Shown one piece after another: positions 10,260 to 58,885 of a stretch of 64,000 nt of DNA. The translations under genes and the position numbers were made by a program. The stretch comes from Pseudomonas sp. Teo4 (lineage in GTDB: Bacteria > Pseudomonadota > Gammaproteobacteria > Pseudomonadales > Pseudomonadaceae): contig NZ_JAXCIL010000003.1 in assembly GCF_034387475.1 (NCBI RefSeq), positions 62,001-126,000 on the forward strand, written 5' to 3'. Each line of letters begins with the position of its first letter. Positions within the stretch are counted from its first letter, which is position 1. The notes beneath the pieces are model-generated. The model was not told where the DNA came from and did not search any database. It saw nothing but the letters and a program-made list of their open reading frames with translations.

Positions 10260-10281
10260 TTGACTTTCGTTGTGCTATAAT
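10260..10281 (+). repeat. 22-bp dispersed motif, copy 1
   Basis: TTGACTTTCGTT, four bases, then CTATAAT. Lies 14 bp upstream of the leftward gene start at 10246 but points rightward. Matches the other copies at 10411, 10464, 54474 (minus) and 58864 (minus). Confidence 0.7.
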
Positions 10282-10410
10282 CGCAGACAATACGCAAAAA
10301 TAACAACGATGCAAGGAAATTTAGAAAATCGGCTGATTTCTACCGAAGCAGGGATTTCCTGCTCCGATCACCGGTAACGCTTCAACGTGAGCCAATCACC
10401 TGGCCATGCC

Positions 10411-10432
10411 TTGACTATCGTTAGACTATCCG
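10411..10432 (+). repeat. 22-bp dispersed motif, copy 2
   Basis: TTGACTATCGTT followed at the same spacing by CTATCCG. The first 12 bases are identical to the copy at 58864 on the minus strand; the TATAA part is degenerate. Confidence 0.65.
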
Positions 10433-10463
10433 CGCCTGATTTGAGCGAATGGGCGGGCATCTG

Positions 10464-10485
10464 TCAACTTTCGTTGTATTATAAC
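10464..10485 (+). repeat. 22-bp dispersed motif, copy 3
   Basis: TCAACTTTCGTT, four bases, then TATAAC-type end. It ends two bases before the 39-bp palindrome and points to the gene at 10665. Confidence 0.7.
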
Positions 10486-10487
10486 TG

Positions 10488-10526
10488 CTAGACATGGTGT
10501 AAATAACATATTTACACCATGTCTAG
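10488..10526. repeat. Perfect 39-bp palindrome (18-bp arms, 3-bp centre)
   Basis: The left arm starts CTAGACATGGTG and ends AAATA; after the centre ACA the right arm is its exact reverse complement, ending CACCATGTCTAG. There is no following T-run, so it is not an ordinary terminator. It could be a protein-binding site, a cruciform or a folded single-strand element. Confidence 0.85.
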
Positions 10527-10664
10527 GGCGGCCTGAGGCCGTTTCAGCGGTCATTGGCGAGGTATCGCGCAGGCAGCTTTCAGTGATGAGGGAGAGAAGT
10601 AGAGTGGCGGTTTGGTGGAAAAATGGTTTTAATACGTATTGTCATAGTGCGCGGAGGTTTTGAC

Positions 10665-10952
10665 GTGGGTGAAGACAACTTGAAGATTTCCTGCGTCCTC
10701 GTAGGCGATGCGGCTCTCGATTTCGAGAAATGCCAGGTAACGCTGAAAATTCCTGCGCGAGCGCCGGGTAAGCAGCGGCAGCAGTCACTGGCGATATCTG
10801 CAGCAATGCTCGTGCTGGATGCCACAATTCAGCGCTACCAAGCCGAAAAGGGCGAGAGGTACCCTGCAATAGATCAACTTCTAGAGTATGCTGGCTGTAG
10901 GCCAGCAGACATCAACAAGCTGCTTGGAATCACGGAAAGCGCGACTTCCTGA
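10665..10952 (+). CDS. Hypothetical protein (95 aa)
   Basis: I do not recognise this protein. A GTG at 10665 preceded by GGAGG is preferred over ATG 10623 because of the better ribosome site. The N-terminal half looks like beta strands (KISCVLVGDAALDF, CQVTLKIPAR) and the C-terminal half is helical and ends with DINKLLGITESATS. It is the first gene rightward of the 10.3-kb control region and precedes HU. Confidence 0.55.
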   Translation: MGEDNLKISCVLVGDAALDFEKCQVTLKIPARAPGKQRQQSLAISAAMLVLDATIQRYQAEKGERYPAIDQLLEYAGCRPADINKLLGITESATS

Positions 10953-11017
10953 GTGTTGGCCGCGGCTGTGAGGCGTTTTCCGTTGGAACTGAGCCAGGAC
11001 GAACAAAGGAGCGGAGG

Positions 11018-11296
11018 ATGAGCAAGGCTGTGCTTGTTGGGCTTGTCGCCGAGAAACACGGGTTAACCAAGGCAGAAGCATCGGAAATCGTGAATACCGT
11101 GCTTTCTGGTATACAGAGTGCGCTGGTCAGTCAAGGGAGTATTTCCCTGGTCGGTTTCGGCGTGTTCAGCGTTGTCGACCGTGCTGCGCGAAACGGACGC
11201 AACCCGAATACTGGTGAGCCTGTGACTGTGGCAGCCAGGAAGGCGGTGAGATTCACCCCGGGGGAACCGCTGAAGCGTGCAGTGAACGCTCAGTAA
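11018..11296 (+). CDS. HU-family DNA-binding protein
   Basis: A 92-residue histone-like protein. It has the HU dimer body (AEKHGLTKAEASEIVNTVL), the GFGVFSV strand and the DNA-binding arm with RNGRNPNTGEPVTV, followed by KAVRFTPGEPLKRAVN. The ATG at 11018 follows AGCGGAGG. HU bends DNA and helps replication and recombination; plasmid HU copies often compensate for the load on host nucleoid proteins. A terminator follows at 11309. Confidence 0.93.
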   Translation: MSKAVLVGLVAEKHGLTKAEASEIVNTVLSGIQSALVSQGSISLVGFGVFSVVDRAARNGRNPNTGEPVTVAARKAVRFTPGEPLKRAVNAQ

Positions 11297-11308
11297 TAGA
11301 TGTAGAGC

Positions 11309-11330
11309 CAGGCCCTTCGGGGCCTTGTTT
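11309..11330 (+). terminator. Rho-independent terminator after HU gene
   Basis: CAGGCCC-TTC-GGGGCCTTG followed by TTT. The hairpin starts 13 bases after the HU stop. Confidence 0.7.
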
Positions 11331-11342
11331 CAGGCGTGGTTT

Positions 11343-11395
11343 CTGTATTGCACAATACAGAGACTTGAATGTTTTTTCTGTATTGCACATTACAG
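11343..11395. promoter_or_regulatory. Tandem palindromic operators upstream of the SprT-like gene
   Basis: CTGTATTGCACAATACAG (11343-11360) is a perfect palindrome of 8-bp arms around CA. A second copy with one change lies at 11378-11395, 35 bp away centre to centre. The spacing between CTG and CAG is 12, not the 10 of LexA boxes. An unidentified repressor probably binds both. Confidence 0.6.
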
Positions 11396-11418
11396 ACTTG
11401 CAAGCAGCGGGGGTGCTG

Positions 11419-12273
11419 GTGAGCCACAGACGGCCGACCGAGGAAGCCTATGCAGAGCTGCAGGCTGCCTACGATTTCTACAATGACCATTTGTTCGCGA
11501 GCCAGGAGCGGCTGCCGGCGTGCTTGATCACATATCAGCGCGAAAAGCGGACCATGGGGTATTTCTCTCAGGCCCGTTTCATTCGCCGCGATGGGATCAA
11601 GGCGGATGAGATTGCGATGAATCCCGACTACTTCGCAGTGATTCCCCTGGTCGAGATCCTACAGACGCTAGTGCATGAAATGGTGCACCTCTGGCAATAC
11701 CATTTTGGAAAGCCAAGTCGAGCCTGCTACCACAACACAGAGTGGGCCAACAAAATGGAGGCTCTGGGCTTGATGCCCTCCGACACGGGCAAGCCTGGCG
11801 GCAAGAGGGTAGGGCAGTCGATGAACGACTACGTCATACCTGGCGGTCGGTTCGATGTCGCAACCCGGGAGTTGCTGAAAAGAGGGTTCGCCATCTCGTG
11901 GATGGACCGATTCCCGGTCGACGTGAGGGGACCATCGCGTCCGATGTCGCTTATGCCAGCATCGCTGATGCCTCCGGCAAGTCAGGACTACCAGGGGGAC
12001 GATGATTTGGACGCCGGCGTAGACGAAATAGCTGACGAGCTGGATCCGGCTATCGCCCTGGCCTATCAGGCCCCAGCAGCAGTGGCGAGTCTCGATGTGT
12101 CAGTGAGGCAACCAGGTGACAGGAGCAACAGGCTGAAATATTCCTGCCCAGGCTGCCGGCTAAACATGTGGGGCAAGCCAGGGTTGAAAGTTATTTGTGA
12201 GGAATGCGAGGAGCGCTTGGTTGTCCTGGAGCTGTCTGCAGACTCTACCCAGGAAGCTCTTGCTGCTGATTGA
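11419..12273 (+). CDS. SprT-like zinc metalloprotease with C-terminal zinc ribbon
   Basis: A SprT-like protein of about 284 residues. HEMVHLWQYH (His86-Glu87-x2-His90) is the zinc-protease core, with ACYHNTEW as the distal ligand region. The C terminus has a zinc ribbon (CPGC … CEEC). SprT/Spartan proteins cleave proteins crosslinked to DNA or act on DNA-bound targets, which would fit a plasmid DNA-entry role. The start is uncertain: GTG 11419 and GTG 11413 both follow a GCGGGGG site; an upstream ATG at about 11365 would run through the operators and is less likely. Confidence 0.8.
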   Translation: MSHRRPTEEAYAELQAAYDFYNDHLFASQERLPACLITYQREKRTMGYFSQARFIRRDGIKADEIAMNPDYFAVIPLVEILQTLVHEMVHLWQYHFGKPSRACYHNTEWANKMEALGLMPSDTGKPGGKRVGQSMNDYVIPGGRFDVATRELLKRGFAISWMDRFPVDVRGPSRPMSLMPASLMPPASQDYQGDDDLDAGVDEIADELDPAIALAYQAPAAVASLDVSVRQPGDRSNRLKYSCPGCRLNMWGKPGLKVICEECEERLVVLELSADSTQEALAAD

Positions 12274-12288
12274 ACCTCAGTTCAAACT
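12260..12288 (+). promoter_or_regulatory. Promoter with TTGAAC-N4-GTTCAA operator, copy 1
   Basis: -35-like TTGCTG (12260-12265), a 17-base spacer and CAAACT (12283-12288). The palindrome TTGAACCTCAGTTCAA (12270-12285) fills the spacer. The geometry is the same as the copy at 12903-12931. Confidence 0.6.
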
Positions 12289-12327
12289 GTTGGCCCCATG
12301 GCGATGTTCAAAAGACTGGAGAAGACT

Positions 12328-12678
12328 ATGCAGTATGGAGCGACTCATGAGTTCACCCTGGAAACCGCATCGGGCGTTTTCCATCAGGCCGGCATTCAGA
12401 TCATGGGGCCGGACACCTGGTGTCCGCTACTGGCCGAGAAGGCGAAACCGACCGTTGAGAACACTGCAGTGTTCTATACCCGTCTTGCAGGTCCTGAGGG
12501 CGGACCGACCGAGCAACTGCGCGAATTGCTAGAGCGTTCGTTGGCGTTGATCTCTTCTGGCGGAGCTGACCCGGTGATTCGTGTCCACCTGCACCGCGGC
12601 GAATACCAAGCGCTGGATGCTGCTGCTTTCCAGGCGGTGGTCGGTACTGGCGTTGCCGTTGTCGAGCTCAATGATTGA
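12328..12678 (+). CDS. Hypothetical protein (116 aa)
   Basis: I do not recognise this protein. ATG 12328 has GGAG at the right distance; ATG 12298 is an alternative. It has no membrane segment and looks like a mixed alpha/beta fold, with RVHLHRGEYQALDAAAF near the C terminus. It is the first gene after operator copy 1 and precedes a small HTH protein, so it belongs to the operator-controlled DndB-like unit or its regulator operon. Confidence 0.5.
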   Translation: MQYGATHEFTLETASGVFHQAGIQIMGPDTWCPLLAEKAKPTVENTAVFYTRLAGPEGGPTEQLRELLERSLALISSGGADPVIRVHLHRGEYQALDAAAFQAVVGTGVAVVELND

Positions 12679-12698
12679 CTCAGGCGGAAGGGGCTCTT

Positions 12699-12899
12699 AT
12701 GGCTGACAGAATGACTCCCGAGCAGTTCAAGAGCGAGTATCGCCGCAAGGGATGGACTGGGCTAGCGCTCGCCGAGCGCTGGTCGTTGTCGCCTGCCTGG
12801 ATCAGTAAGCTCGGCAATGATCCCGATCGGGAAGCGCACTGGGATGATGCCGTTCGGGGTCTCCCGACCGTTAAAAAATTGAAGTCCAGTTCAAAATAG
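12699..12899 (+). CDS. Small helix-turn-helix protein (66 aa)
   Basis: The segment GLALAERWSLSPAWISKLGND has the spacing of a helix-turn-helix recognition unit. It is followed by a short basic tail (KKLKSSSK). It sits between the two TTGAAC-N4-GTTCAA operators, so it is the best local candidate for the protein that binds them. This is inference; the HTH assignment itself is moderate because the protein is very short. Confidence 0.6.
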   Translation: MADRMTPEQFKSEYRRKGWTGLALAERWSLSPAWISKLGNDPDREAHWDDAVRGLPTVKKLKSSSK

Positions 12900-12902
12900 C
12901 AC

Positions 12903-12931
12903 TTGCTATAGATTGAACCGGGGTTCAATAT
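12903..12931 (+). promoter_or_regulatory. Promoter with TTGAAC-N4-GTTCAA operator, copy 2
   Basis: -35-like TTGCTA (12903-12908), a 17-base spacer and -10 CAATAT (12926-12931), with the palindrome TTGAACCGGGGTTCAA at 12913-12928. It drives the DndB-like gene at 12966. An extra half site (AGTTCAA) overlaps the end of the HTH gene. Confidence 0.65.
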
Positions 12932-12965
12932 TCCTCCGTCGAATTCATTCTCGCTGGAGGTCCTC

Positions 12966-18523: not shown

Positions 18524-19015
18524 TCAGGCCTTCCGCTCCCCCGCTGGCATGTGCCAGAACTTGTGGACAGTCGAGTAAGGCATCCCAAGCTTCACTGAAG
18601 TTTCTTTCTGGCTGAGGCCGTCAGCCTTGCAGTCGAGGATTGCTTTGATCCTGTCTGGAGGAGTCGGCGGCTTGCCGGATTTCGCCGCTATCAGCACCCC
18701 ATTCGAGAACTGCGCCGGCAGGTTTTCCATCACACGCATCTCACGCAGCTTGCTCAGCTCTGTCCAGAGGTGCGTCATGAACTCTTCAAGTGACTCGTGG
18801 CGTTCGTAGCAAGCGGCAGCTGCGAGGAGTGCAACCGAATCGACGTCCAGGCGCTTACTGATGTCTTCGAGCATCTCAAGGCTGATGTTGGATTTCGCGT
18901 GCTCGACCCTGTGCAGGTGTCTAGCGTCCACCGTGGTTGCGAGATGTTCCTGGGATAGGCCACGAGCGGCACGCGTGGTGCGGAGGACGGCTGCCAGAGT
19001 GTATCGCGATGGCAT
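18524..19015 (-). CDS. XRE-family transcriptional regulator
   Basis: A 163-residue protein. Residues about 8-60 form an XRE helix-turn-helix (LRTTRAARGLSQEHLATTV … EMLEDISKRLDV). A second HTH-like segment lies near the C terminus (GLSQKETSVKLGMPYSTVHKFW), as in resolvase tails. ATG 19015 was chosen because a GGGAAGC site precedes it; the longer frame from 19042 crosses the hairpin. It is divergent from the 19241 gene across a region with a long inverted repeat, so it probably regulates both. Confidence 0.75.
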   Translation of the reverse strand: MPSRYTLAAVLRTTRAARGLSQEHLATTVDARHLHRVEHAKSNISLEMLEDISKRLDVDSVALLAAAACYERHESLEEFMTHLWTELSKLREMRVMENLPAQFSNGVLIAAKSGKPPTPPDRIKAILDCKADGLSQKETSVKLGMPYSTVHKFWHMPAGERKA

Positions 19016-19021
19016 GTGATG

Positions 19022-19095
19022 GCTTCCCGCAAAGGGAAGCATAAGGCCACACTGAAAATTCTACATCTACGTACTATAGGCAGTGAATGTAGAAT
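19022..19095. promoter_or_regulatory. Divergent promoter region with operator and ribosome-site hairpin
   Basis: ATTCTACAT (19058-19066) and ATGTAGAAT (19087-19095) are exact inverted copies, 20 bp apart. A hairpin GCTTCCC-GCAAA-GGGAAGC (19022-19040) covers the regulator's ribosome site and could lower its translation. The binding protein is presumably the XRE regulator. Confidence 0.5.
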
Positions 19096-47721: not shown

Positions 47722-50700
47722 TCATCCGAGGCGTGGCCGGGAAGGTTCTGCAACTGGCTCTTCAGCCGTTTCAAGATCCAGTCGCTGCTCACGTTGAGCA
47801 AGCACATGCCGCGCATAGTCGACCAGGTGGCCAGAGATCTCGTACAGCCGGTCCTCGGCACGATTGACCAACCGATAGCGATCGACGGCACCTACTCGCT
47901 TCGTCTGCAGCGAATCGAAGCCGCCTGCAATGATGTCGTCGACGAACTGGCGTGCGGTCACCACGTTTCCGTTGTAACGGTAGTGCGTGCGGTCAAGCTG
48001 AGCGAGCACGTGCTGCAAGTGGCTCTCAGCAGCACGTTGCTGCGCAGCGGCGTCGCGGCGATGTTGCTTTTCCGCCTCCATCTGGCTGGCCTGCTCCGGC
48101 GAGTATCCTGCCCACCCATAGATCGCTACGGTGATCTCCTTGGCTGTCTTGGCTAGTTTGATGCCTGTGACCTGTGTGAAGTAGCGCTTGGATAGATCGT
48201 TTTGCCCCCGCGGCCGAGCCAGCCACCCCAGCAAATGATCGATGTCCTTGTCGATCAACGCCAAGGCGAACTCGCGGTGCATCCGGCCGGGGATCCCGCT
48301 GTGGCGATCCGGATCCTGCGCTCTCATGAACTCGGCGTAGCCTTGGGCGACCCGCTCCATCTCGATGCCGGCGTCGCCGCGTTCATTCTTCAACCGTGAC
48401 CAGGCCGTTTCTGTCTGTAGAGCTGCGACAGCCTGCTGGATGGCCTGCAGTGCGTCCCACGGCCGGCGTCCGGATGCTTCTACAGCACAGCGGAGCTCGA
48501 TCGAAAGAGGGCAGTCGGGATCGTCCAGCCTAACCATAACCGACTGGTCGGTGGCACGGTTCAGCTGAAGCTCCGCTGGCAGATCAGCATCTTGCTGCTG
48601 GCCTTGGCCGATACGGCGTTGCATACCTTTCTGTTGGTACACCTGCAGGACGTGGTCGAGCAGCTGGTGGCCATCGCTATCGGCCGGGAAGAGCTCCATG
48701 AAGCTCGTAGCGTCGACCTCGAACCGAGGGTTGTCCTTGTTCTGTTCCTGCAGTCTGCGCTCGTAGTGGGCCTGCAGGCGGTCCAGTTCGCGCACTGCCC
48801 ACGCGCAGGCGGAGGAAAGGCTAGTTTTGGGGCCAGTCACACCGCCTCCGGTATTCGGCAAGTAGGTTCCAGGCGACTGGTATTCCACCAGGATGAAGAA
48901 CGGCGATGCGCGGTCCTTGAACCGTAACTCGTAGGAGCGATCGTCCAGGGGCTGTGCCCGGAACTTGCTCTGGTCAAGAGGCTGGATCTCGGCTGTGCTG
49001 TCGGCGCCGAGGTTCGCCTGGCGTATTTCCTCATTCAGCTGGACGAAGAAGGCGTTGCTGTCGAATGCCGGGGCGGATGCCGCTACAGCCAAGGCGGTCT
49101 CAAGCGAAGACTGACTCGGCTTTTTGGGCCAGGGCTGCCCGAGCGGGCGCCATTCCCCGCCGATGAATGCTCTCGCCCAGAAGCAATCCCTGCCGCCATC
49201 CTGCCGGCGGGGGTCATACTTCGATAGCTTGCGGTGAATGAGGGAGACAGCTGTTCCACGGATCAGCACGTGGACCGTTGCATTGTCGAGGAGGTCACCG
49301 ACCTTGTGCGTTGCTCCCTGGGCCACCCCGCTCTCTGGCGACGTGGCCAGCGCCGATGGAGCAGCTTCATCGTTCGTCAGGAAATTCTTGGGACGATCTT
49401 GCAGAACGCCGGGGCCTCCGTGCGGTAACGCGGCGGCAGGTTCGGTGATCCGCACACCGTCCTTGACGATGCTGCGAATGCCCAGGGTGTTCTCTTCAAG
49501 AGATTCGCCGGCGTCGTTGCTGCCAATGGACTTCCAGTAATGATCTGCTTGGCTGAGTGAGTCCTCGATTCGCTCTCGAAGGTCATCCAGTGCGTCTGCT
49601 TCCGATAGGCCGGAGCCGCGCAGCTCGGCGTACTCAGGACCTTCACGGCGAGCCTCGTACCATCCCTGTCCTGGTGTGCGGTCATTCCACGAGACAGCGA
49701 CCTCGCCGAGGATTTGCTGCAGCGCCCAATCTGCCATTTTCAGCGCTTCGGCCTTCTGTCTGGGCGTTGTGACGCTGTCCTGTGATCGAGCTATCCGACG
49801 CTGTTCCAGGACGATTCGGTTGCCGGCATAGAATACGGCGTCGAATCGAGAGGTAAACCCGTCCCCTCGGCAAGTCATCGGCTCCGATCGGCCGCTATGG
49901 TTACCCTGATGGTGATGAGTTGTGATCGCGCTGTACCAGCGGCCCTCGTCCAAAGCAACCTGGATCATTGCGGTGGCCATCGCCCGGCCCTTTACCCGCT
50001 GGTCGGCTTCATACAACAGGTTCTCGACCTCGGAGGAGTCTTGTTCGTCCACTGCGCCCTTTTGGGTGACAGCAAGAATCTTGGTTTGAATGAGGTCGAC
50101 CGTGTAGGCCGGATCCAATCCTCGTAGCGGCATCACCCCGGCGACGATTTGGCCATCCAACTTCGCGTGCACAAGAGAGCCGTGGTTCGGAGCGTCGATT
50201 TCCCAGTCATTGGCTACGAAGAACACGGCCCCTGGGTACTTCACCGCAATGTAGTCGTGATAGCGCTTGTCGAGTGAAACGAGGCGGCCCGAGGACCTGG
50301 CTAGGATCACGGCATCTTTGTCGTCGTGCATCCTTCGGTACACGAATACCGGTTTCATCGCGTCAGCGGTCTCATGCTCCAGAAAACGGCTGATGTCCGG
50401 CCGTTTCGCCAGAGGCGTATTCTGGAAGCGACGGCTCTCGTTCTTCTCGAAGCTGCGGTAGTTCGGTTCTTCCAAATCGAATACGTGGCCGTTGGTCCAA
50501 GCGACAGAAGCTCCGTTCCGGACCCGGAACCAGCCGTTATCCTTGTCTATCCATGCTTTGGTGAAACCGATTTCTGACGCTAGAGGCTTTGTCACGGCCT
50601 GGGCCCCGAATGGCTCGAACCGTTCCCAGTTGCGCTCCTCCTCTTCGGCTTTGGCTGCCGCGAGCCTGGCCTCCAGGTCGACCAGGAGGCTTTCCGCCTG

Positions 50701-53700
50701 GTGGACGGTGGTTGCAGCACTTTCTAGCATCTCGATGGCCAGCGCGTTCTCAGGAGCAATGGTGCGCAAGTCCTCGATCCGCGCTGCAGTTTTCCGCAGA
50801 TGGCTGGCTTTGAACCCCCGGAGGTTATCACCCAGTCGCCTCACTGCATCCGCCAGCCGTTTGGGCTCGCTGGGTATATCCTGAAATTGTTCCAGACCTA
50901 CGGCTATGTTGAATGAGGCGGGAGAGGGTAGATGTTTCTCCATGAGCGTCACCAGCTGGGCCTGGTCCGCCGGCAGGTCGGCGCTGAAGGCGAGCTGGGC
51001 AACCCAGTCTCCTTGGGACACCACTCCTCTGTCAGCGCAAAGAACACGAATGAGTGCCTGAACCCGGCGCTTGGGATCGACCTCCTTCCTCGACACCGCC
51101 AGAGCAGCTTGAAAGGCTTCTACAGGATCAGCGGGCGGTAGGAACTGCAGGGATCCGTCAGCTACCCAGCACGTCTCGACTTCCACCATCGCTTCGGCCG
51201 CATCTCGAATTAGCTCGAAGCCTTTGTCACCCGCCGAGTTTTCAAGAACCTTGCTCACCACCCCGGTGACCGGCTGCTTTGCCGCGTTGGCAGGAGTGAA
51301 GCGGACTCGATCGCCCGCCTGCATTGTGCTCCCGGTGAGCTCATTTTGTGGCAAGGTGGCCCGGGCGGCGGCGACCATCTCGGTCATTTCCGAGGCCATG
51401 AGTTGCCGGGCGGATTTGACTGCATTGTGGTCGCCACGCTTATGAGCGGCATACAAGTCGCGCTCGGCTCTGCTGAAATCGGCCGAGCGATAGTGCTCGG
51501 CCGGGGCGAAGAACCGGTACCCGTTGAAGGATGTCTCAGCGTAAAAATCGCCGGGAAGCGAATAGCGAGTAGCTTCGTACCTCGTGTTGATCCCGTACAG
51601 GGGGAGCCTGGTGGGAGCGGTGGATGGCAAGCGCAGCAAAATACGTGATCTGGTGATATCGGCCGGCTCTGCATCGGTGGTCGTTGCAGGTCGAGGCAAT
51701 ACCTCACGCTGCGCATTGATCTCGTGCCAGCCCTTCATCCATTCGCGCATCGCAGGTACGCCATCGCCTACGTTGCCCCCCAACGTTGCCATCAGATCCT
51801 TATCCCAGGCTGGAACGCACTTCATGCCCTGTTCTGCAGCCCGTCGACCTAGTTCATAAGGAGACAGCTGGACGGGCGAGGAGATTGCACTCGTGCTTTC
51901 AAACTTGAAGGCCTCAACCAGGGACTCCCTGACGGCCTCCGCCGCCACGTGGAGCACTCTTTCACCTTTGGTGAAGGGGTCGCCGTTGACCTGCACCACA
52001 CCCCCTTGGGACACAGCGATACGGACAGATACGTCTTCGCGGACCAGCGTGGCGTAGCGCCATTTGCCAATGGTGGACGGGCCAGACTCCTCCCAAGGTG
52101 AGACTTCCGCGTTGAGCTCGGCGGCGAGTTTTTCAACGATGGCCATCCCCTCGTAAAGGCGATTCTCAGGGCCGTCTTCCAGGCTTTCATCGGCATCATC
52201 CGACCATTCCAGCCGGGCACTGGAGAACCCCTGCTGAAGGAGGTTCTGGGCAAAGATGTTCGCGAAGCTGCGGTCAAGGCCCCGCAGTTCTCCGCCACGG
52301 ATCGGGTTCTGCACTGCGGTCTCGCACAGAACGAGGTGACCGGCGGGGCGTATCTCGAAAATCATTTCGCTATCGATGAAACGATCGCCGTTCGACTCCA
52401 GGTAGTGGGTGAGGCAGAGACGTGGCGACGATTCCGCTGGCAGACGCTCGATAATGAGATCCGTGTAGGGCGGATTGACGAGCCGGACGTAGCTGTTGAA
52501 TCCCGTCATCAGCCGCTCTGCCAGGCCAGCCTCTGATAGCAGCTTGGAGACGGACCGGGCTGCCCGTTCACCTGGGCCGTAGGCGACATCTGGATAGTCG
52601 ACCAAGACGTGAAATGGTATTTGCTTGCCGTCGGCGAATGCCCGGCGAACGGCCTGCTTGTGAGCTGCAGTCAGCGCTTTTGCGGGTGTGATCTGGTCTG
52701 TCGCGAATGCCTGGTTACGGAAATGGACCTCCACTGTTCCGTCCGAGGCCCTCCTGGTGACCGCGACTGTCTTGAATTGGTGTTGGGATACCAGCCATGC
52801 CTCCGTGGGCTCGATCGAGCTGCTGCCCGCCGCTGCGCCAACGCGCTCAGGCTCCCAAGCGTCATCGATCGATGCTGCCTGGATCTGGTCTTGAGGATGA
52901 GGCGCTGCAGGGGAGGTATCTACCGGCTGCTCTGCGGTATCGAGACGAAGGCGTTCGGCTTGGGCGAAGTCTATCGCCTGCTTTCGGTCGAGCGCCTCAA
53001 CGCTGCAGGGGAAGCGACCATCCTGGAATACCACAAGGTACTCAGACACCATGCCGCGACGGCCAAACTTGGCTACTTCATGGGCCTTCACGACTCGCGC
53101 AGGACCAGTGCGCTTACGTGCCGACTTGATTGCCGGAAGCATGAAGGCTGCGACAGATGACCGTTCAGGCGCAGCTGCAGCGATTGTGTGCGACTGGTCT
53201 GGCTCAGGATCCAGAAGGGAAGGGTACTCGGCAACAACATCGAAAGGGACCTGCTTGCCCTCCGAGAGAGCTTTCATCACCACGTCGTAGTGCGTTACGG
53301 CCTCTTCCAGCGCCGCGATGGCCTCTTGGTCGCCGGCGAGCGCACGCTGATGCCGCCATGCCGCAACACCGTAGGAAAGCTCGGAAAGCCTGCCAATTCG
53401 CCCAGCCTCGGAACTTGCGGAAACCTTCATCGGTGTGGCGAGCTCGCGTCGAGCGGAAATCCACTCTGCCGAACTCATCTGCCAGGGGGCCTTTTCGACG
53501 CCGGCGTTTTGTCCCGCGGCGACTGAAACAGCTTCAAGATTGCTCGGGATGGGGACGTAGAATATCTCCGACATTTCCATCTGGCGCGACCTGGCCTTGG
53601 GGAAGTGGCGGATAATTTCGGGGAGGGTGAAGCGGAGGTTGGTGCGTCGGTAGAGGGCTCCATCTTTCTCGAAACCCAGCTCCGTTACCGACTGGGGGAT

Positions 53701-53802
53701 CACTCCCCCAGGTAATGACCGCAGGACAAGCGACTTGCCTTCTGGATCTTGTTGGACGTTTAGCTCTACATCATGTTCAGAAAGGTCGATCCAGGTTGGC
53801 AT
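47722..53802 (-). CDS. Giant polyvalent-type protein (2026 aa)
   Basis: Predicted very long multi-domain protein of the sort carried by conjugative elements and delivered or made early in a new host. It has several repeat-like alpha/beta segments; GKQVPFDVVAEYPSLL (near residue 185) and GKQIPFHVLVDYPDV (near 395) are two copies of a motif common in such proteins. I see no clear relaxase, helicase Walker or nuclease motif by eye. There is no signal or membrane segment. It is 20 bases downstream of an AbiEi-like gene. The exact functions are unknown. Confidence 0.65.
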   Translation of the reverse strand: MPTWIDLSEHDVELNVQQDPEGKSLVLRSLPGGVIPQSVTELGFEKDGALYRRTNLRFTLPEIIRHFPKARSRQMEMSEIFYVPIPSNLEAVSVAAGQNAGVEKAPWQMSSAEWISARRELATPMKVSASSEAGRIGRLSELSYGVAAWRHQRALAGDQEAIAALEEAVTHYDVVMKALSEGKQVPFDVVAEYPSLLDPEPDQSHTIAAAAPERSSVAAFMLPAIKSARKRTGPARVVKAHEVAKFGRRGMVSEYLVVFQDGRFPCSVEALDRKQAIDFAQAERLRLDTAEQPVDTSPAAPHPQDQIQAASIDDAWEPERVGAAAGSSSIEPTEAWLVSQHQFKTVAVTRRASDGTVEVHFRNQAFATDQITPAKALTAAHKQAVRRAFADGKQIPFHVLVDYPDVAYGPGERAARSVSKLLSEAGLAERLMTGFNSYVRLVNPPYTDLIIERLPAESSPRLCLTHYLESNGDRFIDSEMIFEIRPAGHLVLCETAVQNPIRGGELRGLDRSFANIFAQNLLQQGFSSARLEWSDDADESLEDGPENRLYEGMAIVEKLAAELNAEVSPWEESGPSTIGKWRYATLVREDVSVRIAVSQGGVVQVNGDPFTKGERVLHVAAEAVRESLVEAFKFESTSAISSPVQLSPYELGRRAAEQGMKCVPAWDKDLMATLGGNVGDGVPAMREWMKGWHEINAQREVLPRPATTTDAEPADITRSRILLRLPSTAPTRLPLYGINTRYEATRYSLPGDFYAETSFNGYRFFAPAEHYRSADFSRAERDLYAAHKRGDHNAVKSARQLMASEMTEMVAAARATLPQNELTGSTMQAGDRVRFTPANAAKQPVTGVVSKVLENSAGDKGFELIRDAAEAMVEVETCWVADGSLQFLPPADPVEAFQAALAVSRKEVDPKRRVQALIRVLCADRGVVSQGDWVAQLAFSADLPADQAQLVTLMEKHLPSPASFNIAVGLEQFQDIPSEPKRLADAVRRLGDNLRGFKASHLRKTAARIEDLRTIAPENALAIEMLESAATTVHQAESLLVDLEARLAAAKAEEEERNWERFEPFGAQAVTKPLASEIGFTKAWIDKDNGWFRVRNGASVAWTNGHVFDLEEPNYRSFEKNESRRFQNTPLAKRPDISRFLEHETADAMKPVFVYRRMHDDKDAVILARSSGRLVSLDKRYHDYIAVKYPGAVFFVANDWEIDAPNHGSLVHAKLDGQIVAGVMPLRGLDPAYTVDLIQTKILAVTQKGAVDEQDSSEVENLLYEADQRVKGRAMATAMIQVALDEGRWYSAITTHHHQGNHSGRSEPMTCRGDGFTSRFDAVFYAGNRIVLEQRRIARSQDSVTTPRQKAEALKMADWALQQILGEVAVSWNDRTPGQGWYEARREGPEYAELRGSGLSEADALDDLRERIEDSLSQADHYWKSIGSNDAGESLEENTLGIRSIVKDGVRITEPAAALPHGGPGVLQDRPKNFLTNDEAAPSALATSPESGVAQGATHKVGDLLDNATVHVLIRGTAVSLIHRKLSKYDPRRQDGGRDCFWARAFIGGEWRPLGQPWPKKPSQSSLETALAVAASAPAFDSNAFFVQLNEEIRQANLGADSTAEIQPLDQSKFRAQPLDDRSYELRFKDRASPFFILVEYQSPGTYLPNTGGGVTGPKTSLSSACAWAVRELDRLQAHYERRLQEQNKDNPRFEVDATSFMELFPADSDGHQLLDHVLQVYQQKGMQRRIGQGQQQDADLPAELQLNRATDQSVMVRLDDPDCPLSIELRCAVEASGRRPWDALQAIQQAVAALQTETAWSRLKNERGDAGIEMERVAQGYAEFMRAQDPDRHSGIPGRMHREFALALIDKDIDHLLGWLARPRGQNDLSKRYFTQVTGIKLAKTAKEITVAIYGWAGYSPEQASQMEAEKQHRRDAAAQQRAAESHLQHVLAQLDRTHYRYNGNVVTARQFVDDIIAGGFDSLQTKRVGAVDRYRLVNRAEDRLYEISGHLVDYARHVLAQREQRLDLETAEEPVAEPSRPRLG

Positions 53803-53822: not shown

Positions 53823-54443
53823 TCAGCTGCGCCTCCGCTGAGAGAAGAAGTGCTTGAGGAGGCGCTCGAATTCATTGGTTTTCTCGGCTGCCTGGGCGAT
53901 GGTTTCAAGCGCGGCCAGGGTGGAGGCCTTGCTGCCATACTTCAGCTGCAGCTGCTCAAAGATCTTGTCCATCTCCTGCTCCGGGAGATGTTTCTCGACG
54001 TTTTTCTTCGTCGCGTCCATCAGGTGGATCAGCGTCATTTCTGGGGTAGCGCAGTGCATCTCGAACTGCCCCAGGGGATCCTCGAACTTTGCGAGCTCGT
54101 ACATCCTCTCGTCGGTGAGCTTGGGATGGACCATGCTCTGTACGATGCGGAAGTCACCCTCGTATGGCGCGATGCTTTTCTTGTATGGGTAGTCACCTCC
54201 TAGAAAAACTCGCCCGTCCACAGGTTTGCGGTACCAGGCGGTGGAGTGCGTCAAAGCAGCGCTTTGGAAGCAGAACTTCGCCAGGCGGATGCCATAGAGC
54301 TCAAAAAGGACCTCGGCATCTTTTCCCGTCCTGAAGTAAACCCCTTGCGCGACCCGAACGATCTGTTTGTCCCGCTTTAGGGCGTATGCTTCGTGCTTGT
54401 CGGTGTTCACCCCGACAAGCAAGACATCATGTCGTTCGTCCAT
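53823..54443 (-). CDS. AbiEi-like antitoxin/regulatory protein (206 aa)
   Basis: The N-terminal 100 residues (ALKRDKQIVRVAQGVYFR, LYGIRLAKFCFQSAALTHSTAW) match the wing-HTH plus strand pattern of AbiEi/HipA-N-like proteins. The C-terminal 80 residues are helical. It lies directly upstream of the giant protein and may regulate it. No AbiEii nucleotidyltransferase is beside it, so a complete AbiE system is not claimed. Confidence 0.5.
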   Translation of the reverse strand: MDERHDVLLVGVNTDKHEAYALKRDKQIVRVAQGVYFRTGKDAEVLFELYGIRLAKFCFQSAALTHSTAWYRKPVDGRVFLGGDYPYKKSIAPYEGDFRIVQSMVHPKLTDERMYELAKFEDPLGQFEMHCATPEMTLIHLMDATKKNVEKHLPEQEMDKIFEQLQLKYGSKASTLAALETIAQAAEKTNEFERLLKHFFSQRRRS

Positions 54444-54473: not shown

Positions 54474-54495
54474 TTTATAATCAAACGAAAGTAAA
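54474..54495 (-). repeat. 22-bp dispersed motif, copy 4
   Basis: On the minus strand TTTACTTTCGTTTG, then TTATAAA at the same spacing as the 10.3-kb copies. It lies 31-52 bases upstream of the 54443 start in the direction of transcription. Confidence 0.7.
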
Positions 54496-54507
54496 ACAGA
54501 GGCGTCG

Positions 54508-55449
54508 TCACATCGCCTCTCCCTCTGGTGGCAGCAAATGGGCATAGATCTGTGTTGTGGCAAGATCCTCATGCCCAAGATTCTCCTTGATCTGCAAAAT
54601 CGGCACGCCTCTGGCGAACATGACGCTCGCGGCCGTATGGCGGAGCACATGTGCGCCACAACGCTTCAGCTTTCCTGCCAGCCCAGCAGACTGCAGGTGC
54701 CGGGATACCTGTTGGTACACAAGCGATCCGGAGAGACGTCGTCCAGCCCTTGAGATGAAGAGCAGATCGCTTTCCCGCTCGTGCTGCTGCAAAACTTCGG
54801 CCCGGGTCTTGAGCCATGCACGCATGGGATCGAGGGCGCGGTCGTCATGTGAAAAGTCGATCAGCCGCTCCTTATTCCCTTTTCCTACTACCCTCATCCG
54901 GCGGTAGTGAAGGTCCAGTCCACTAATAGTGGCATTACAGATCTCTTCGTTCCGGAGACCGGTCGCAAGCCCTAAGCTGACTATGGCGGAATCCCTGACT
55001 TTCGCTGGGCCATGACTTGAGTCTATCACCTGTAAGAGATGACGCTGGTCTCGCCACATCAAAACCGGAGGCAGTCTCTTTGGCCGGTTTCCTCCACCTG
55101 GCGTGCCAGGCCTGCGGCCCGTGTGTCTCGGCAGGCGTTCCATTGGACTATCCGTCACGACTCCGGTTTCAACAAGCCAGTGGAACAAGGCGCACAGCGC
55201 AGAGTGGCGCAAGACCTGATATGCCCTGGAATAGGGCTTCCCGCCGACGCCAGGAGCTCGGAGGAACGCTATCACGCAATCATCGTCAAGCGCATTGGGG
55301 AACGCTTCCTCGCTTCGACTGTCTATGTAGCGCAGGAAGCCGGTCGCCACTGCGCAATAGACGCGAATCGTCTTCGACGAATACGGGCTGGCGAAGGCGG
55401 TCCTCAGCCAGTTCTCGAATGCGTCGACGGCGAATGCGGGAGTGGTCAC
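54508..55449 (-). CDS. Tyrosine recombinase (XerC/XerD-type)
   Basis: A 313-residue recombinase with an N-terminal SAM-like core-binding domain (TIRVYCAVATGFLRYI) and the catalytic domain: GLATGLRNEEI (Arg I), GKGNKERLIDF (Lys), HVLRHTAASVMFA (His-x2-Arg) and LGHEDLATTQIYAHL (His and nucleophile Tyr). Its likely role is resolution of plasmid multimers or of a local site. No att site or core repeat is seen near it. Both flanks are hypothetical genes. Confidence 0.92.
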   Translation of the reverse strand: MTTPAFAVDAFENWLRTAFASPYSSKTIRVYCAVATGFLRYIDSRSEEAFPNALDDDCVIAFLRAPGVGGKPYSRAYQVLRHSALCALFHWLVETGVVTDSPMERLPRHTGRRPGTPGGGNRPKRLPPVLMWRDQRHLLQVIDSSHGPAKVRDSAIVSLGLATGLRNEEICNATISGLDLHYRRMRVVGKGNKERLIDFSHDDRALDPMRAWLKTRAEVLQQHERESDLLFISRAGRRLSGSLVYQQVSRHLQSAGLAGKLKRCGAHVLRHTAASVMFARGVPILQIKENLGHEDLATTQIYAHLLPPEGEAM

Positions 55450-55511: not shown

Positions 55512-55539
55512 TTTCACGTTGGCGCTGTTAAACTATAAA
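55512..55539 (+). promoter_or_regulatory. Promoter of the 54-aa gene
   Basis: TTTCAC (55512-55517), 16 bases, TATAAA (55534-55539); the gene starts at 55572. Confidence 0.5.
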
Positions 55540-55571
55540 ACAATGCGAGTCATAGCCACAGAGGAACCCAC

Positions 55572-55736
55572 ATGCAGACGATGACCTTGGCCCTGAAATC
55601 ACTGGTTGACCAGGTGAAGCAAGGCCCGGCGCTGGGTAATTCTCAAGCCTCCAGCCCCTCGCGCAGCGTCAAGATCGCTGATGTCCGGGAAGCTGCAGCC
55701 GAAGCCAAAGAATCCCTCCAGCTCAGGTACCGCTAA
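55572..55736 (+). CDS. Small hypothetical protein (54 aa)
   Basis: I do not recognise this protein. ATG 55572 follows GAGGAA, and a promoter and a downstream terminator frame it as its own unit between two leftward operons. The product is hydrophilic (VDQVKQGPALGNSQASS, then VREAAAEAKESLQL), with no membrane segment. It could be a small regulator or antitoxin-type peptide. Confidence 0.55.
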   Translation: MQTMTLALKSLVDQVKQGPALGNSQASSPSRSVKIADVREAAAEAKESLQLRYR

Positions 55737-55792
55737 ACTCAGGCGGGCCTTATAACCAATTAAAAGTCGCTATTCTGCGGACAAGAGTCTAC

Positions 55793-55834
55793 AAAAAAGG
55801 GGCGTCAGACCAGTGGTTTGGCGCCCCTTTCTTT
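55793..55834. terminator. Bidirectional rho-independent terminator
   Basis: AAAAAA, then GGGGCG pairing with CGCCCC across about 17 bases, then TTTCTTT. It separates the 54-aa gene from the leftward gene that ends at 55840. Confidence 0.8.
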
Positions 55835-55839
55835 ATGCC

Positions 55840-57012
55840 CTAAAGCGATGGCCGTGTGCCATTATTTTCATCTCGAAATGTCGCGTCTGCCATAACTTTG
55901 GCGCCAGAAAAATCGAGATAGCAGACCTCGGGGATTTCGTAATCGCGGTCGCCAATGCTTTCGTCCGGGAAGGCCTCCTGAAGCTCGCCGACGTCAACGC
56001 GCATGACTGCCGGCAGCCGCCCTGAGCTAGCCACGATAGCGCCACTGCACACATCGAACTCATAAGTCTCATCGCAGCAATGGAGCAGGGCGGTTCCGCG
56101 GGAGAGCTGGCGAGCGATAGCAGGAAGCACCCCCGCAGAGTGGATCGCTGTGACGCCGGCGGGAGTGACGCTGACTTGGGGCCACGAGCCCCCCAGCTGG
56201 TTCGGCTCGGATCCGCCTGTCCTCTCGGCGTAACCCAGGAGCACCAGGTGGGTGAGATTTTCAGCACCATGTGCGCCATCGCCGCCCCGAGTGTCGCCCC
56301 ACGCATATCCCGCAGCACCCTCTGCCGAGGTCAGGTAAATTCGGGCCAATTCGCCTAAATCAGGGTCCGACTTCACACCGGGAAGCAGCGACTTGAGACC
56401 TAGAGATGTCAACGGTGCATCACCGCACGCCCCTGGGTAGCTGCCGCGGAATAGGTACACTTCGCTATCCAGGAGCTTCGGTGACAATGCGAGCACGGCG
56501 CACATGGGCACCGTCTGCGGGCCTATCCCATCACACACGAGCGCCGCGTAATGGGGGGCGGCCAACACATGACCACCTGGTAGCTGCACGGGTTTCACAC
56601 CCTGCTGAAGGCCCTGCCCGAGTGCTCGAAAAATCCGGTCCGCGAATCGCCGATGCGGATCCTGGACGATCATCCTGTTTTCAAGCGCCATGAGGGCTCG
56701 CAGCTCCTCATGACAGCTCTCGACCAGGGAGCTGTCACTCGAATCACGGTAGCGCTCGATGTCATCCATCAGCTTCTGATGAGGATTTGCGACATCAAAG
56801 GTCAAGTGGGCCAATCGACACGAGAAAGGCCAGGGAGTCTGACCATAGGTGCCGGGAAAACGCATTTCCCGTACCGTCGTCCAGAAACGATGCAGCTGCT
56901 CCAGATCATCGAAGCGCTGCAGGAGATCCGTCACCCGGTCGCGTACTCCGGTGACTGGCCAGTGCTCCTCTGCAGGCCAGTGCGCCAGAACGTCGTCGAT
57001 ACTGTTCAACAT
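55840..57012 (-). CDS. Hypothetical protein (390 aa)
   Basis: I do not recognise this protein. It begins MLNSIDDVLAHWPAEEHWPV and is soluble with mixed folds; a run in the second half (LLHCCDETYEFDVCSGAIVASS) looks like beta strands. A proline/glycine-rich stretch lies in the middle. It is 15 bases downstream of the ardC-like gene, and so part of the same leftward unit. Confidence 0.5.
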   Translation of the reverse strand: MLNSIDDVLAHWPAEEHWPVTGVRDRVTDLLQRFDDLEQLHRFWTTVREMRFPGTYGQTPWPFSCRLAHLTFDVANPHQKLMDDIERYRDSSDSSLVESCHEELRALMALENRMIVQDPHRRFADRIFRALGQGLQQGVKPVQLPGGHVLAAPHYAALVCDGIGPQTVPMCAVLALSPKLLDSEVYLFRGSYPGACGDAPLTSLGLKSLLPGVKSDPDLGELARIYLTSAEGAAGYAWGDTRGGDGAHGAENLTHLVLLGYAERTGGSEPNQLGGSWPQVSVTPAGVTAIHSAGVLPAIARQLSRGTALLHCCDETYEFDVCSGAIVASSGRLPAVMRVDVGELQEAFPDESIGDRDYEIPEVCYLDFSGAKVMADATFRDENNGTRPSL

Positions 57013-57027
57013 GTCTGTGTACCTGTG

Positions 57028-58650
57028 TTAAGGACGAGGACCTTCAAGCTCTAAGTCCGGCTCGAAGTCGAAGTCACTGGCGTCGAAAATGTCATCCGGG
57101 GCGCCTGCCGCAACCGCGGCCGTCATCTGGTCCCGGTGTTCTGCCTCGAATTCCTCACGGAAGTCGGGATGGAAGCTGAGTACATATCGAGCCATTCGCT
57201 CCGCATCACGCGAGGCACGGAAAATCTCCTTCTTGTCGTTGCGGAGGACCTGCAGGTAGTGGTCGACGTAGCCCGCATGCCCATCGACGCTTCCGGGCAG
57301 CGCAAGCCGCATGGCCATCATGGCGCTGGCCATCTCCGCACGCAGTTCCTCGCGAGCATATTCATCTGAGTCGCGGCTGGGCCCGAACTCACGAGCTAGG
57401 CGACTTTCGTGACCTGACCAGTGTGCGATCTCGTGCAGCAGAGTGGTGTAGTACTCGGCGTCGGAGGAGAACGACTCCCTGTCGGGCATATAGATCCTGT
57501 CCTCGGAAGGGGAGTAGCCTGCGCGGCGGAAGCCATGGACGATGTCGGCCCCGCAAGCCTCAATGATCTCCTCGCAGATATCCCGAGTCTCGGATGAAAG
57601 CAGCTTCTCTCCGCGGCCAGTGGTCTCCAGCTCAGGAGCCCCGTCCATTTGTGCCAGGTTGAAAACCGAGTAACTGCGAAGAAGCGGTATGACGCGAACT
57701 TCTGGTTCGCCGGTCGCACTCAGCTCGCCGGTTTCCTTGGTGAGACGCTTGTAGAAGTAGATCTTGGAGCCGCTTTCACCGCCACGGACTTGCCAGCCTT
57801 GAGCTTGCGCGGTCTTGTAGGAGCACCACCGGTTCTCTTGGTAACCCTGCGAAAGAAGTAGCATCACGTTGATGCCATGATAGGGCTTGCCGGTTACGGG
57901 ATTCATCGGCCATCGCGGTGTGTTATCCCACTCGCATCGCCAAGGCTCTGCTCCAGCTTCGATGGCGGATATGATCTGATCCGTCACCTCTTGGTAGTGG
58001 TCACGAGGCGCACCTCGCTCGTGCTTCCCTTTTTTCCCAGCTCCAGCGCCCTTCCGTCGACCAGGTTCGGCTGCTGCTTCGAGGGGATCAATCGGCTCCT
58101 CGATCGGGGGAGGGCTGGATGGCAATGCCGGTGACGACGAGGCTGCCGGCGCCTCATCGCTCATGCTCAAGCGGACCGACGGGCCATCGGCGCTAAAGCT
58201 CCGATCATCGCCGCGCTCCCACAGCATGGCAGTCGCTTCTGCCGTCTTACGATCATCCTTGACCCTGGAAATCTGCTCAGACGTGGCGTTGGAATCGTGT
58301 CGGAGTAACTCTTCGACCTGCAGCGCTTCTTGCGCAGCCTTATACAGCGCATCTTGTTGCTGACTGACGCTGAATTTTTGCAGCCACTCAGGGCCAAACT
58401 CGTTTCTAAGCTGCTGCAGAACGGCCGCATGCTGAGTCCCAAGGCCTGGGTAGCTGGAGCGACTCCAGCAGTTGTTCAGCTCGGCTTTCCAGCTTCGGCC
58501 TTTCAGGGTGCGGAAGACCCTGATGGCCTCCAGTTGCAACAAAGAAAGCTTCGTGTCCTGCCGGCTGGCATTGTTAGAGGCTACAGGAGCATGGGCCGGC
58601 GGCGCCTGTGTCGCCGAATCGCTGGGACGAAGGCGTTTGATCAGGGCCAT
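57028..58650 (-). CDS. ArdC-like anti-restriction protein with zincin domain
   Basis: A 540-residue protein. Residues 210-345 form the ArdC single-strand DNA-binding domain (DQIISAIEAGAEPWRCEWD, GINVMLLLSQGY, VFNLAQMDG). Residues 395-455 carry the zinc protease motif HEIAHW (406-411) with a downstream Glu in EELRAEMASAMM. ArdC-type proteins protect incoming single strands from host nucleases and are needed for conjugation into some hosts. The first 205 residues are an extra, unrecognised helical extension with a proline-rich linker. Confidence 0.9.
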   Translation of the reverse strand: MALIKRLRPSDSATQAPPAHAPVASNNASRQDTKLSLLQLEAIRVFRTLKGRSWKAELNNCWSRSSYPGLGTQHAAVLQQLRNEFGPEWLQKFSVSQQQDALYKAAQEALQVEELLRHDSNATSEQISRVKDDRKTAEATAMLWERGDDRSFSADGPSVRLSMSDEAPAASSSPALPSSPPPIEEPIDPLEAAAEPGRRKGAGAGKKGKHERGAPRDHYQEVTDQIISAIEAGAEPWRCEWDNTPRWPMNPVTGKPYHGINVMLLLSQGYQENRWCSYKTAQAQGWQVRGGESGSKIYFYKRLTKETGELSATGEPEVRVIPLLRSYSVFNLAQMDGAPELETTGRGEKLLSSETRDICEEIIEACGADIVHGFRRAGYSPSEDRIYMPDRESFSSDAEYYTTLLHEIAHWSGHESRLAREFGPSRDSDEYAREELRAEMASAMMAMRLALPGSVDGHAGYVDHYLQVLRNDKKEIFRASRDAERMARYVLSFHPDFREEFEAEHRDQMTAAVAAGAPDDIFDASDFDFEPDLELEGPRP

Positions 58651-58655
58651 CAGCC

Positions 58656-58814
58656 TTACTCCCCGTCCAGATCTTCGGCATCCTGCAGATCGCCCGGGAC
58701 GGCGTCCAGCCCGAGGTCACGGACTTCCTGCCAGCCCAGATCGTCGTGGGGGATATCACGGGCGCCGACTTCAGGCAGGATCTTCTGTGTATTGGTGTTG
58801 GCGGTATCGCTCAT
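58656..58814 (-). CDS. Small acidic protein (52 aa) upstream of ardC
   Basis: I do not recognise this protein. ATG 58814 opens a 52-residue acidic frame (starts MSDTANTNTQ, ends DAEDLDGE). It lies five bases before the ardC start and behind one copy of the 22-bp motif, so it is the first gene of that operon. Acidic DNA-mimic proteins are common next to anti-restriction genes, but nothing specific can be shown here. Confidence 0.55.
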   Translation of the reverse strand: MSDTANTNTQKILPEVGARDIPHDDLGWQEVRDLGLDAVPGDLQDAEDLDGE

Positions 58815-58863
58815 GGCAGTCTCCATCTAGGGGGAAATCACCATGATTCTATTAACTGAGGCG

Positions 58864-58885
58864 TTTAAAAACAAACGATAGTCAA
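58864..58885 (-). repeat. 22-bp dispersed motif, copy 5
   Basis: On the minus strand TTGACTATCGTT, four bases, then TTTAAA. It is 50-70 bases upstream of the 52-aa start. Confidence 0.7.

What the first reader, a model, noticed from the sequence alone, without database searches (positions are those of the whole stretch)
10260..58885. Five copies of a 22-bp motif before early-entry genes
TTGACTWTCGTT followed after four bases by a YTATAA-type end occurs at 10260, 10411, 10464 (plus) and 54474, 58864 (minus). The latter two point at an AbiEi-like/giant-protein operon and a 52-aa/ardC operon; the first three lie between the rdgC-methyltransferase-ssb operon and the HU operon. The TTGACT to TATAA gap is only 10 bp, unlike sigma-70 promoters (about 17). 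These neighbours are typical leading-region genes, so the motif could be a plasmid-specific regulatory box or a folded single-strand promoter used just after transfer.
Basis: partly seen in the sequence, partly recalled or inferred. Interest (0 to 1): 0.75.

Follow-up and report, generated by a model that had tools for sequence, protein, structure and literature searches.

The report
Plasmid-wide regulatory box at conjugation genes
The five repeated sequence words are a sample of about twenty copies of a control box that a family of Pseudomonas conjugative plasmids places in front of its replication, transfer, pilus and establishment genes, so the plasmid seems to run its own gene-control circuit, whose reader protein is not yet identified.

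Summary
The motif is real but was read too narrowly. The window is 100% identical to part of the 150-kb plasmid NZ_CP139777 (pND6-2 family). A trained profile finds 22 sites on that plasmid, against 0.1 per shuffle: at rep, dotD, dotA, pilM, helicases, HU, ardC and others. 19 of 22 are intergenic and 17 of 22 point at a start codon within 400 bp. In the 6.5-Mb host genome 15 of 17 hits lie on the plasmid. The box (TTGACTTTCRTT) lies directly upstream of a -10-like TATM, with hardly any -35 signal. A Stenotrophomonas plasmid with most shared proteins 30-55% identical has its own diverged box at 13 of 15 equivalent positions. So this is an old plasmid-wide regulon, not a leading-region device. 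The single-strand-promoter idea fails: copies lie on both strands and at rep, transfer and pilus genes, and no unusually stable fold contains the box. Activator versus repressor is open; activator is favoured. The published repressor MtvTA acts on some of the same promoters but is absent from the distant relative.

The parts
10260..10281 (+). copy 1: TTGACTTTCGTT-GTGC-TATAAT, points toward the HU operon; 13 bp from the start of the divergent rdgC operon
   Evidence: exact match to the 18-bp core; conserved in pPYO_TB and pNY7610-NR
10411..10432 (+). copy 2: TTGACTATCGTT-AGAC-TATCCG
   Evidence: 2 mismatches to the core; conserved
10464..10485 (+). copy 3: TCAACTTTCGTT-GTAT-TATAAC
   Evidence: exact core; conserved
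10488..10526 (.). near-perfect inverted repeat (CTAGACATGGTGTAAATA..TATTTACACCATGTCTAG) directly after copy 3
   Evidence: DNA fold z = -6.6 for its region; centre conserved in pPYO_TB
10665..11296 (+). first genes of the HU operon (95-aa protein, HU), downstream of copies 1-3
   Evidence: annotation of NZ_CP139777 mapped to the window
9962..10246 (-). first gene of the divergent rdgC-methyltransferase-ssb operon; no profile site points at it
54474..54495 (-). copy 4: TTTACTTTCGTT-TGAT-TATAAA, 31 bp before the 206-aa gene
   Evidence: exact core; distance; equivalent site at the same 31-bp distance in the Stenotrophomonas plasmid
53823..54443 (-). 206-aa hypothetical protein, 100% identical in pPYO_TB and pNY7610-NR, 40% in pACYCa.6E
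47722..53802 (-). 2026-aa hypothetical protein with a DUF6908 domain
55532..55554 (-). further site TATGACTCGCATT-GTTT-TATAGT, in front of the tyrosine recombinase
   Evidence: profile score 21.2
55749..55771 (-). further site AGCGACTTTTAAT-TGGT-TATAAG
   Evidence: profile score 18.6
54508..55449 (-). tyrosine-type recombinase gene
   Evidence: annotation mapped
58864..58885 (-). copy 5: TTGACTATCGTT-TGTT-TTTAAA, before the 52-aa/ardC operon
   Evidence: 1 mismatch to the core; equivalent site before ardC in pACYCa.6E
57028..58814 (-). 52-aa gene and ArdC-type gene (ArdcN and MPTase-PolyVal domains)
4525..4535 (-). exact match to the published MtvA operator TAACATTGTTA, upstream of mtvTA (window 3486-4027)
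   Evidence: operator from PMC11826091

Best explanation
The five copies belong to a plasmid-wide regulon of the pND6-2-type plasmids (Dot/Icm transfer system). A plasmid-encoded DNA-binding factor reads the asymmetric box TTGACTTTCRTT (about -28 to -17), which adjoins a -10-like TATM used by host sigma-70 RNA polymerase at promoters that lack a proper -35 element. Binding sets the promoters of replication, Dot/Icm transfer, pilus, helicase/UvrD, HU and anti-restriction operons together. SHOWN by sequence: the plasmid-wide set, its position and orientation, plasmid specificity, near-absence of a -35 signal, and conservation with drift in a distant plasmid clan. Reversed copies near start codons (icmL, the 201-aa gene) would give local repression or autoregulation.
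For: 22 sites on NZ_CP139777 and 23 on pPYO_TB (both used for training) and 23 on pNY7610-NR (not used for training) at score >=14, against a mean of 0.1 per second-order Markov shuffle, 20 shuffles. 19 of 22 are intergenic; 16 of 22 point at a start within 300 bp and 17 within 400; random positions 15% within 300, random intergenic positions 37%. 15 of 17 hits in the host genome are on the plasmid. The Rep protein of pNY7610-NR is 65% identical to that of Teo6, yet its gene keeps a box just upstream. A box precedes the helicase gene beside csf1/csf2 on pPYO_TB and pNY7610-NR. The best -10 match lies at the in-motif TATM in sense sites of both clans (z 8.7 and 8.3, partly circular because the profile contains TATM); sense sites match better than reversed ones (4.27 vs 2.77; X clan 2.01 vs 0.71). 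The Stenotrophomonas plasmid pACYCa.6E carries a diverged box GCCACWTTCRTTGGYATATM: 7 seeds grow to 27 sites, against 7-9 in 6 shuffles and 5-8 in 3 plasmids (or parts) without the box. It sits at 13 of 15 equivalent positions, random mean 0.7 (max 5), intergenic-matched mean 2.8 (max 9), 20000 draws each. Candidate pair: found in 41 and 42 plasmid records, practically the same ones, adjacent in all 14 Xanthomonas/Stenotrophomonas records; XRE fold of the 201-aa protein and a shared best match of the second domain.
Confidence: 0.75

Rival explanations
1. Global repressor operator: a plasmid-encoded repressor sits on the -10 region of many promoters and holds the plasmid quiet, as KorA/KorB or ArdK do elsewhere.
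For: Plasmid operators of that kind are known (ArdK/CUP passages). Reversed copies lie at start codons: icmL and the 201-aa gene on Teo6; dotD, UvrD, icmL and the homologous gene on pACYCa.6E. One plasmid record without the 258-aa gene exists. A slight -35 excess (p 0.04).
Against: A repressed sigma-70 promoter should keep a good -35, and the signal is very weak. The site is not palindromic. 33 of 49 classified sites are co-oriented with the gene, sign test p = 0.02.
Confidence: 0.3
2. A plasmid-encoded alternative sigma or single-subunit RNA polymerase recognises the whole 17-bp element as its promoter.
For: Compact asymmetric element of fixed spacing, almost absent from the chromosome.
Against: No T7-like polymerase (PF00940) found in the own genome, though the control genomes did not ring either. 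The only gene annotated as sigma factor (window 18524-19042) is an HTH protein with a weak region-4-like tail and lies in a stretch with no counterpart in pPYO_TB. The spacing is too short for a usual -35/-10 pair.
Confidence: 0.1
3. The box is the operator of the known regulator MtvTA, which represses dotA, dotD, icmP and icmL.
For: MtvTA acts on promoters of which dotA and dotD carry the box, and icmL has boxes nearby; pilM mRNA was also measured in the mutant.
Against: MtvA's published site is the palindrome TAACATTGTTA. It occurs exactly at mtvTA, with 2 mismatches at dotA, 3 at dotD and 4 at icmL and pilM. mtvTA has no tblastn hit on pACYCa.6E, which has the box. The authors report no significant sequence similarity among the promoters.
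Confidence: 0.06
4. Single-strand (Frpo-like) promoter used just after transfer.
For: Some copies lie near ssb/rdgC and ardC, genes of leading-region type (recalled).
Against: Copies on both strands (12/10), plasmid-wide at rep/tra/pil genes, no unusually stable fold that contains the box. Frpo promoters fold into a stable stem-loop that rebuilds both boxes (passages).
Confidence: 0.03

Closest known systems
AcaCD regulon of IncA/C plasmids
   Same: Plasmid-encoded master regulator with a box before many transfer operons across the plasmid; passages seen report 17 ChIP-exo peaks, all intergenic. That it is two-subunit (FlhCD-like) is recalled.
   Different: AcaCD sites were described as class 2 activator positions; here the box is inside the about -28..-17 interval next to the -10. 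No FlhC/FlhD-type domain was seen among the 47 proteins scanned with Pfam.
ArdK/CUP system of IncN plasmids
   Same: Conserved upstream boxes control ardB, ardK and repA (passages).
   Different: The 22-site set reaches transfer and pilus operons; ArdK is called TrfB-like, and no TrfB hit was seen among the proteins scanned (pNY7610-NR has one gene annotated TrfB-related).
T4 middle promoters (MotA box plus sigma-70 -10, sigma appropriation)
   Same: A factor box replaces the -35 while the host -10 is kept (passages).
   Different: The MotA box lies 12 +/- 1 bp from the -10; here the conserved box ends 4 bp from it. No MotA or AsiA homologue was sought by name.
MtvT/MtvA of pPAD8 (same plasmid family)
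   Same: Plasmid-encoded regulator of dotA, dotD, icmL and icmP.
   Different: Binds TAACATTGTTA; no hit in the distant clan that keeps the box.
Frpo single-strand promoters of F
   Different: Stem-loop that rebuilds -35 and -10; not found here.

Membership tests
Plasmid-wide regulon controlled by a plasmid-encoded master regulator (AcaCD-like kind) | one sequence box before many plasmid operons, specific to the plasmid | tested here: met
Plasmid-wide regulon controlled by a plasmid-encoded master regulator (AcaCD-like kind) | identified plasmid-encoded protein that binds the box | not testable with these tools
   candidates only
Plasmid-wide regulon controlled by a plasmid-encoded master regulator (AcaCD-like kind) | FlhC/FlhD-type subunits | tested here: inconclusive
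   no such Pfam hit in the 47 plasmid proteins scanned, of 153 annotated features
ArdK/CUP | reader of the TrfB/KorA family | tested here: inconclusive
   no such hit among the proteins scanned; one gene annotated TrfB-related on pNY7610-NR
Frpo-type single-strand promoter | stable stem-loop rebuilding -35 and -10 | tested here: not met
   z +0.7, +0.1, -1.2 for copies 1, 2, 5 (folds touch the box but are ordinary); copy 4 -2.2 from an upstream hairpin; copy 3 -6.6 from a downstream hairpin
Frpo-type single-strand promoter | restricted to the leading region and to one strand | tested here: not met
   12 plus and 10 minus sites over the whole plasmid; oriT was not mapped
sigma-70 promoter | -10 hexamer | tested here: met
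   in-motif TATM, z 8.7 in Teo6 sense sites (partly circular); weaker in pACYCa.6E
sigma-70 promoter | -35 hexamer at 16-18 bp | tested here: not met
   mean best 0.1 vs null -0.69, p 0.04; a slight excess, far from a consensus element
MtvA operator | palindrome TAACATTGTTA at the site | tested here: not met
T4 MotA-type middle promoter | factor box 12 +/- 1 bp upstream of the -10 | tested here: not met
   box ends 4 bp upstream of TATM; the general logic (box replaces -35) may still be shared
XRE/Cro-C1 HTH proteins (candidate readers) | XRE fold in the N-terminal domain | tested here: met

The most novel reading that the evidence does not exclude
A family of conjugative plasmids has its own promoter class. 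A heteromeric pair of paralogous XRE-type proteins, with a second domain whose best solved match is TT1805 (1wn9), binds a compact asymmetric box inside the normal -35/-10 spacer. It takes over the role of the sigma -35 contacts and so redirects host RNA polymerase to about 20 plasmid operons. The protein pair and the box have drifted together between Pseudomonas and Xanthomonadaceae plasmids.
Probability: 0.25. Interest if true: 0.8.

Novelty: new variant of a known kind. Interest (0 to 1): 0.6.

Why it matters
pND6-2-type plasmids carry carbapenemase, heavy-metal and catabolic genes and type IV CRISPR loci in Pseudomonas, yet the only published regulator of their genes that I came across is MtvTA. 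A single box shared by rep, transfer, pilus and establishment operons would be the backbone of that control. It also gives a direct, testable handle on a promoter geometry (factor box within the spacer, hardly any -35) that does not match AcaCD, ArdK or MotA as described, with two diverged plasmid clans available for matching box to reader.

Tried and rejected
Rejected: single-strand promoter. T7-like polymerase: no hit in the own genome, control silent. The annotated 'sigma factor' of the window as reader: it lies in a stretch with no counterpart in pPYO_TB. Readers with no tblastn hit (E <= 0.01) on pACYCa.6E although the box is there: MtvTA, the 307-aa ParB-HTH protein, the 90-aa HTH protein, the 253-aa basic protein. 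The 'site-specific integrase' was not excluded, but its relatives are far wider (263 records).

Led nowhere: exact pattern scan of genome contigs (28 stretches) and viral contigs (5 stretches), about the number I estimated for chance (my own estimate, not a call), except L024, a Stutzerimonas contig with the three rdgC-HU sites; four others (L011, L026, L031, L039) had a second weaker hit that I did not follow. Search for relatives of the 258-aa protein in viral contigs (50 pattern matches, none a relative), in 369 class genomes, 398 phylum genomes and 398 genus genomes: only the own genome. Foldseek of both models against PDB: none below E 0.001. Rfam: nothing at gathering score.

Dropped from counts: pS810a (NZ_OL468819.1), because its record carries periodic artificial-looking substitutions; it has 11 sites at score >=14 as served. 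In the orientation count four weak or in-gene pACYCa.6E hits (19430, 20478, 70643, 112279) were left out. The equivalence windows were drawn by me after seeing both site lists, the reversed-site windows more tightly than the rest; hit 19430 was left out there. Two of the three comparison plasmids without the box were only part-fetched (50 of 136 kb of pBYT5-2, 48 of 88 kb of pQZPH41-KPC), so absence of genes or boxes there is partial.

Not in print, as far as searched: pND6-2 (12 papers), TTGACTTTCGTT (1 irrelevant paper), pPAD8 (5 papers, 1 relevant). Li et al. 2013 on pND6-2 is not held.
Full report
WHAT IS THERE. The five copies exist, with one correction: the box and TATAA are separated by four bases (ACTWTCGTT-N4-TATAA), not by four bases plus Y. 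In the window the corrected pattern is above chance (9 matches with up to 3 mismatches against a mean of 1.92; 0 of 100 shuffles reach 9). The 12-base part alone is not. The window is 100% identical to positions 46166-110165 (reverse strand) of plasmid NZ_CP139777, p1_Teo6 of Pseudomonas asiatica, 150,161 bp, MPF_I.

THE WHOLE PLASMID. A profile trained from four seed sites on p1_Teo6 and pPYO_TB gives 22 sites on p1_Teo6, 23 on pPYO_TB and, outside the training set, 23 on pNY7610-NR at score 14 or more; 20 second-order Markov shuffles of p1_Teo6 give 0.1 on average. Consensus: yTTGACTTTCRTTGnnYTATMnT, with ACT invariant in 25 sites and the rest of ACTTTCRTT and TAT strongly conserved. 19 of 22 sites are intergenic, although only 13.7% of the plasmid is non-coding; 16 of 22 point at a start codon within 300 bp (random positions 15%, random intergenic positions 37%) and 17 of 22 within 400. 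The genes served include rep, dotD (two boxes), dotA, the gene before icmL, pilM, UvrD and DEAD helicases, the HU operon (three boxes), ardC, the 206-aa/giant-gene pair and a tyrosine recombinase. On pPYO_TB and pNY7610-NR a further box precedes the helicase gene beside csf1/csf2.

SPECIFICITY. In the host genome 15 of 17 hits with at most one mismatch are on the plasmid contig; the reversed control pattern gives 4 hits. Among 398 Pseudomonas genomes 18 have an exact hit; the own genome has 8, the others 1 or 2. Dot/Icm-type plasmids outside the family (Stutzerimonas F2 whole, 50 kb of pBYT5-2, 48 kb of pQZPH41-KPC) have 0, 1 and 0 hits at score 11.

A DISTANT RELATIVE HAS THE SAME CIRCUIT WITH A CHANGED BOX. 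The 258-aa HTH protein led to Xanthomonas/Stenotrophomonas plasmids (about 36% identity). The Stenotrophomonas plasmid pACYCa.6E is largely syntenic; most shared proteins are about 30-55% identical. Seven weak hits there grow to 27 sites (30 in the first run), while six shuffles give 7-9 and three plasmids or parts without the box 5-8. Its box is GCCACWTTCRTTGGYATATM. It occurs at 13 of 15 positions equivalent to p1_Teo6 site clusters, in the same orientation (missing: pilM, DEAD helicase). Random placement gives 0.7, intergenic-matched placement 2.8, maximum 9 in 20000; I drew the windows after seeing both lists. Distances also agree: 31 and 31 bp before the 206-aa gene, 31 and 37 before UvrD, 237 and 221 before the gene preceding icmL, 31 and 44 before rep. 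The reversed sites (inside the gene between ParM and TcpQ, at the 3' end of the strawberry-notch gene, at the start of the 201-aa gene, before icmL) recur as well, so they are unlikely to be noise.

KNOWN WORK. pPAD8 (NZ_CP061074) belongs to this family; MtvTA represses dotA, dotD, icmP and icmL; its site at its own promoter is given as TAACATTGTTA, and the authors state that the regulated promoters show no significant sequence similarities (PMC11826091; outline, passages and three sections read). The box was not mentioned in what I read. It is present at dotA and dotD and near icmL. Other papers: passages only, of PMC6133989, PMC11962381, PMC6289460, PMC4207636, PMC2988021 and PMC9849209.

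VERDICT. A real, conserved, plasmid-wide regulatory box; not found described for this plasmid family in the searches named; unusual in geometry; reader and sign unproven.

Noticed in passing
NZ_OL468819.1 (pS810a), loci L044-L046: Intergenic stretches differ from the p1_Teo6 backbone by complements at every 2nd or every 6th base, in the cases viewed starting at gene borders: 2751 of 4611 mismatches are complement-type (59.7%, controls 18.3%), spacings of exactly 2 (717) and 6 (566). The record as served looks altered.
   Followed up: partly
window 10488-10526: Near-perfect long inverted repeat directly after copy 3; centre conserved in pPYO_TB; could be an operator or a 5' RNA hairpin.
   Followed up: partly
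window 3486-4535: mtvTA (annotated ChpS/PemK-like) with an exact MtvA palindrome upstream; the window thus holds a published regulator of transfer and virulence.
   Followed up: partly
window 18524-19042 (-): Protein annotated as sigma-70 factor is an XRE HTH with a weak region-4-like tail.
   Followed up: no
L004:49808 and L048 around 46006: A box precedes the helicase gene of the type IV CRISPR locus, suggesting that the locus joined the plasmid's own regulon.
   Followed up: partly
L001 about 1685-1712: Perfect palindrome GGTGCACAAGTGCACC between a box and the start of the 90-aa HTH gene; conserved in pPYO_TB.
   Followed up: no
L056 (CP125217.1): IS21-adjacent loss of the 258-aa and 92-aa HTH genes and neighbours; many genes look frameshifted.
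   Followed up: no
CP065422.1: A 'Priestia aryabhattai' plasmid record is 100% identical to this Pseudomonas family over the matched stretches: probable contamination.
   Followed up: no
window about 22000-46000: Accessory catabolic island (dehydrogenases, permeases, folate/serine genes); a search listing shows a paper on TRIS degradation that mentions pND6-2 (PMC10848231).
   Followed up: no
window 9962-10246: No profile site points at the divergent rdgC-ssb operon; copy 1 lies 13 bp from its first start codon, in reverse orientation.
   Followed up: no
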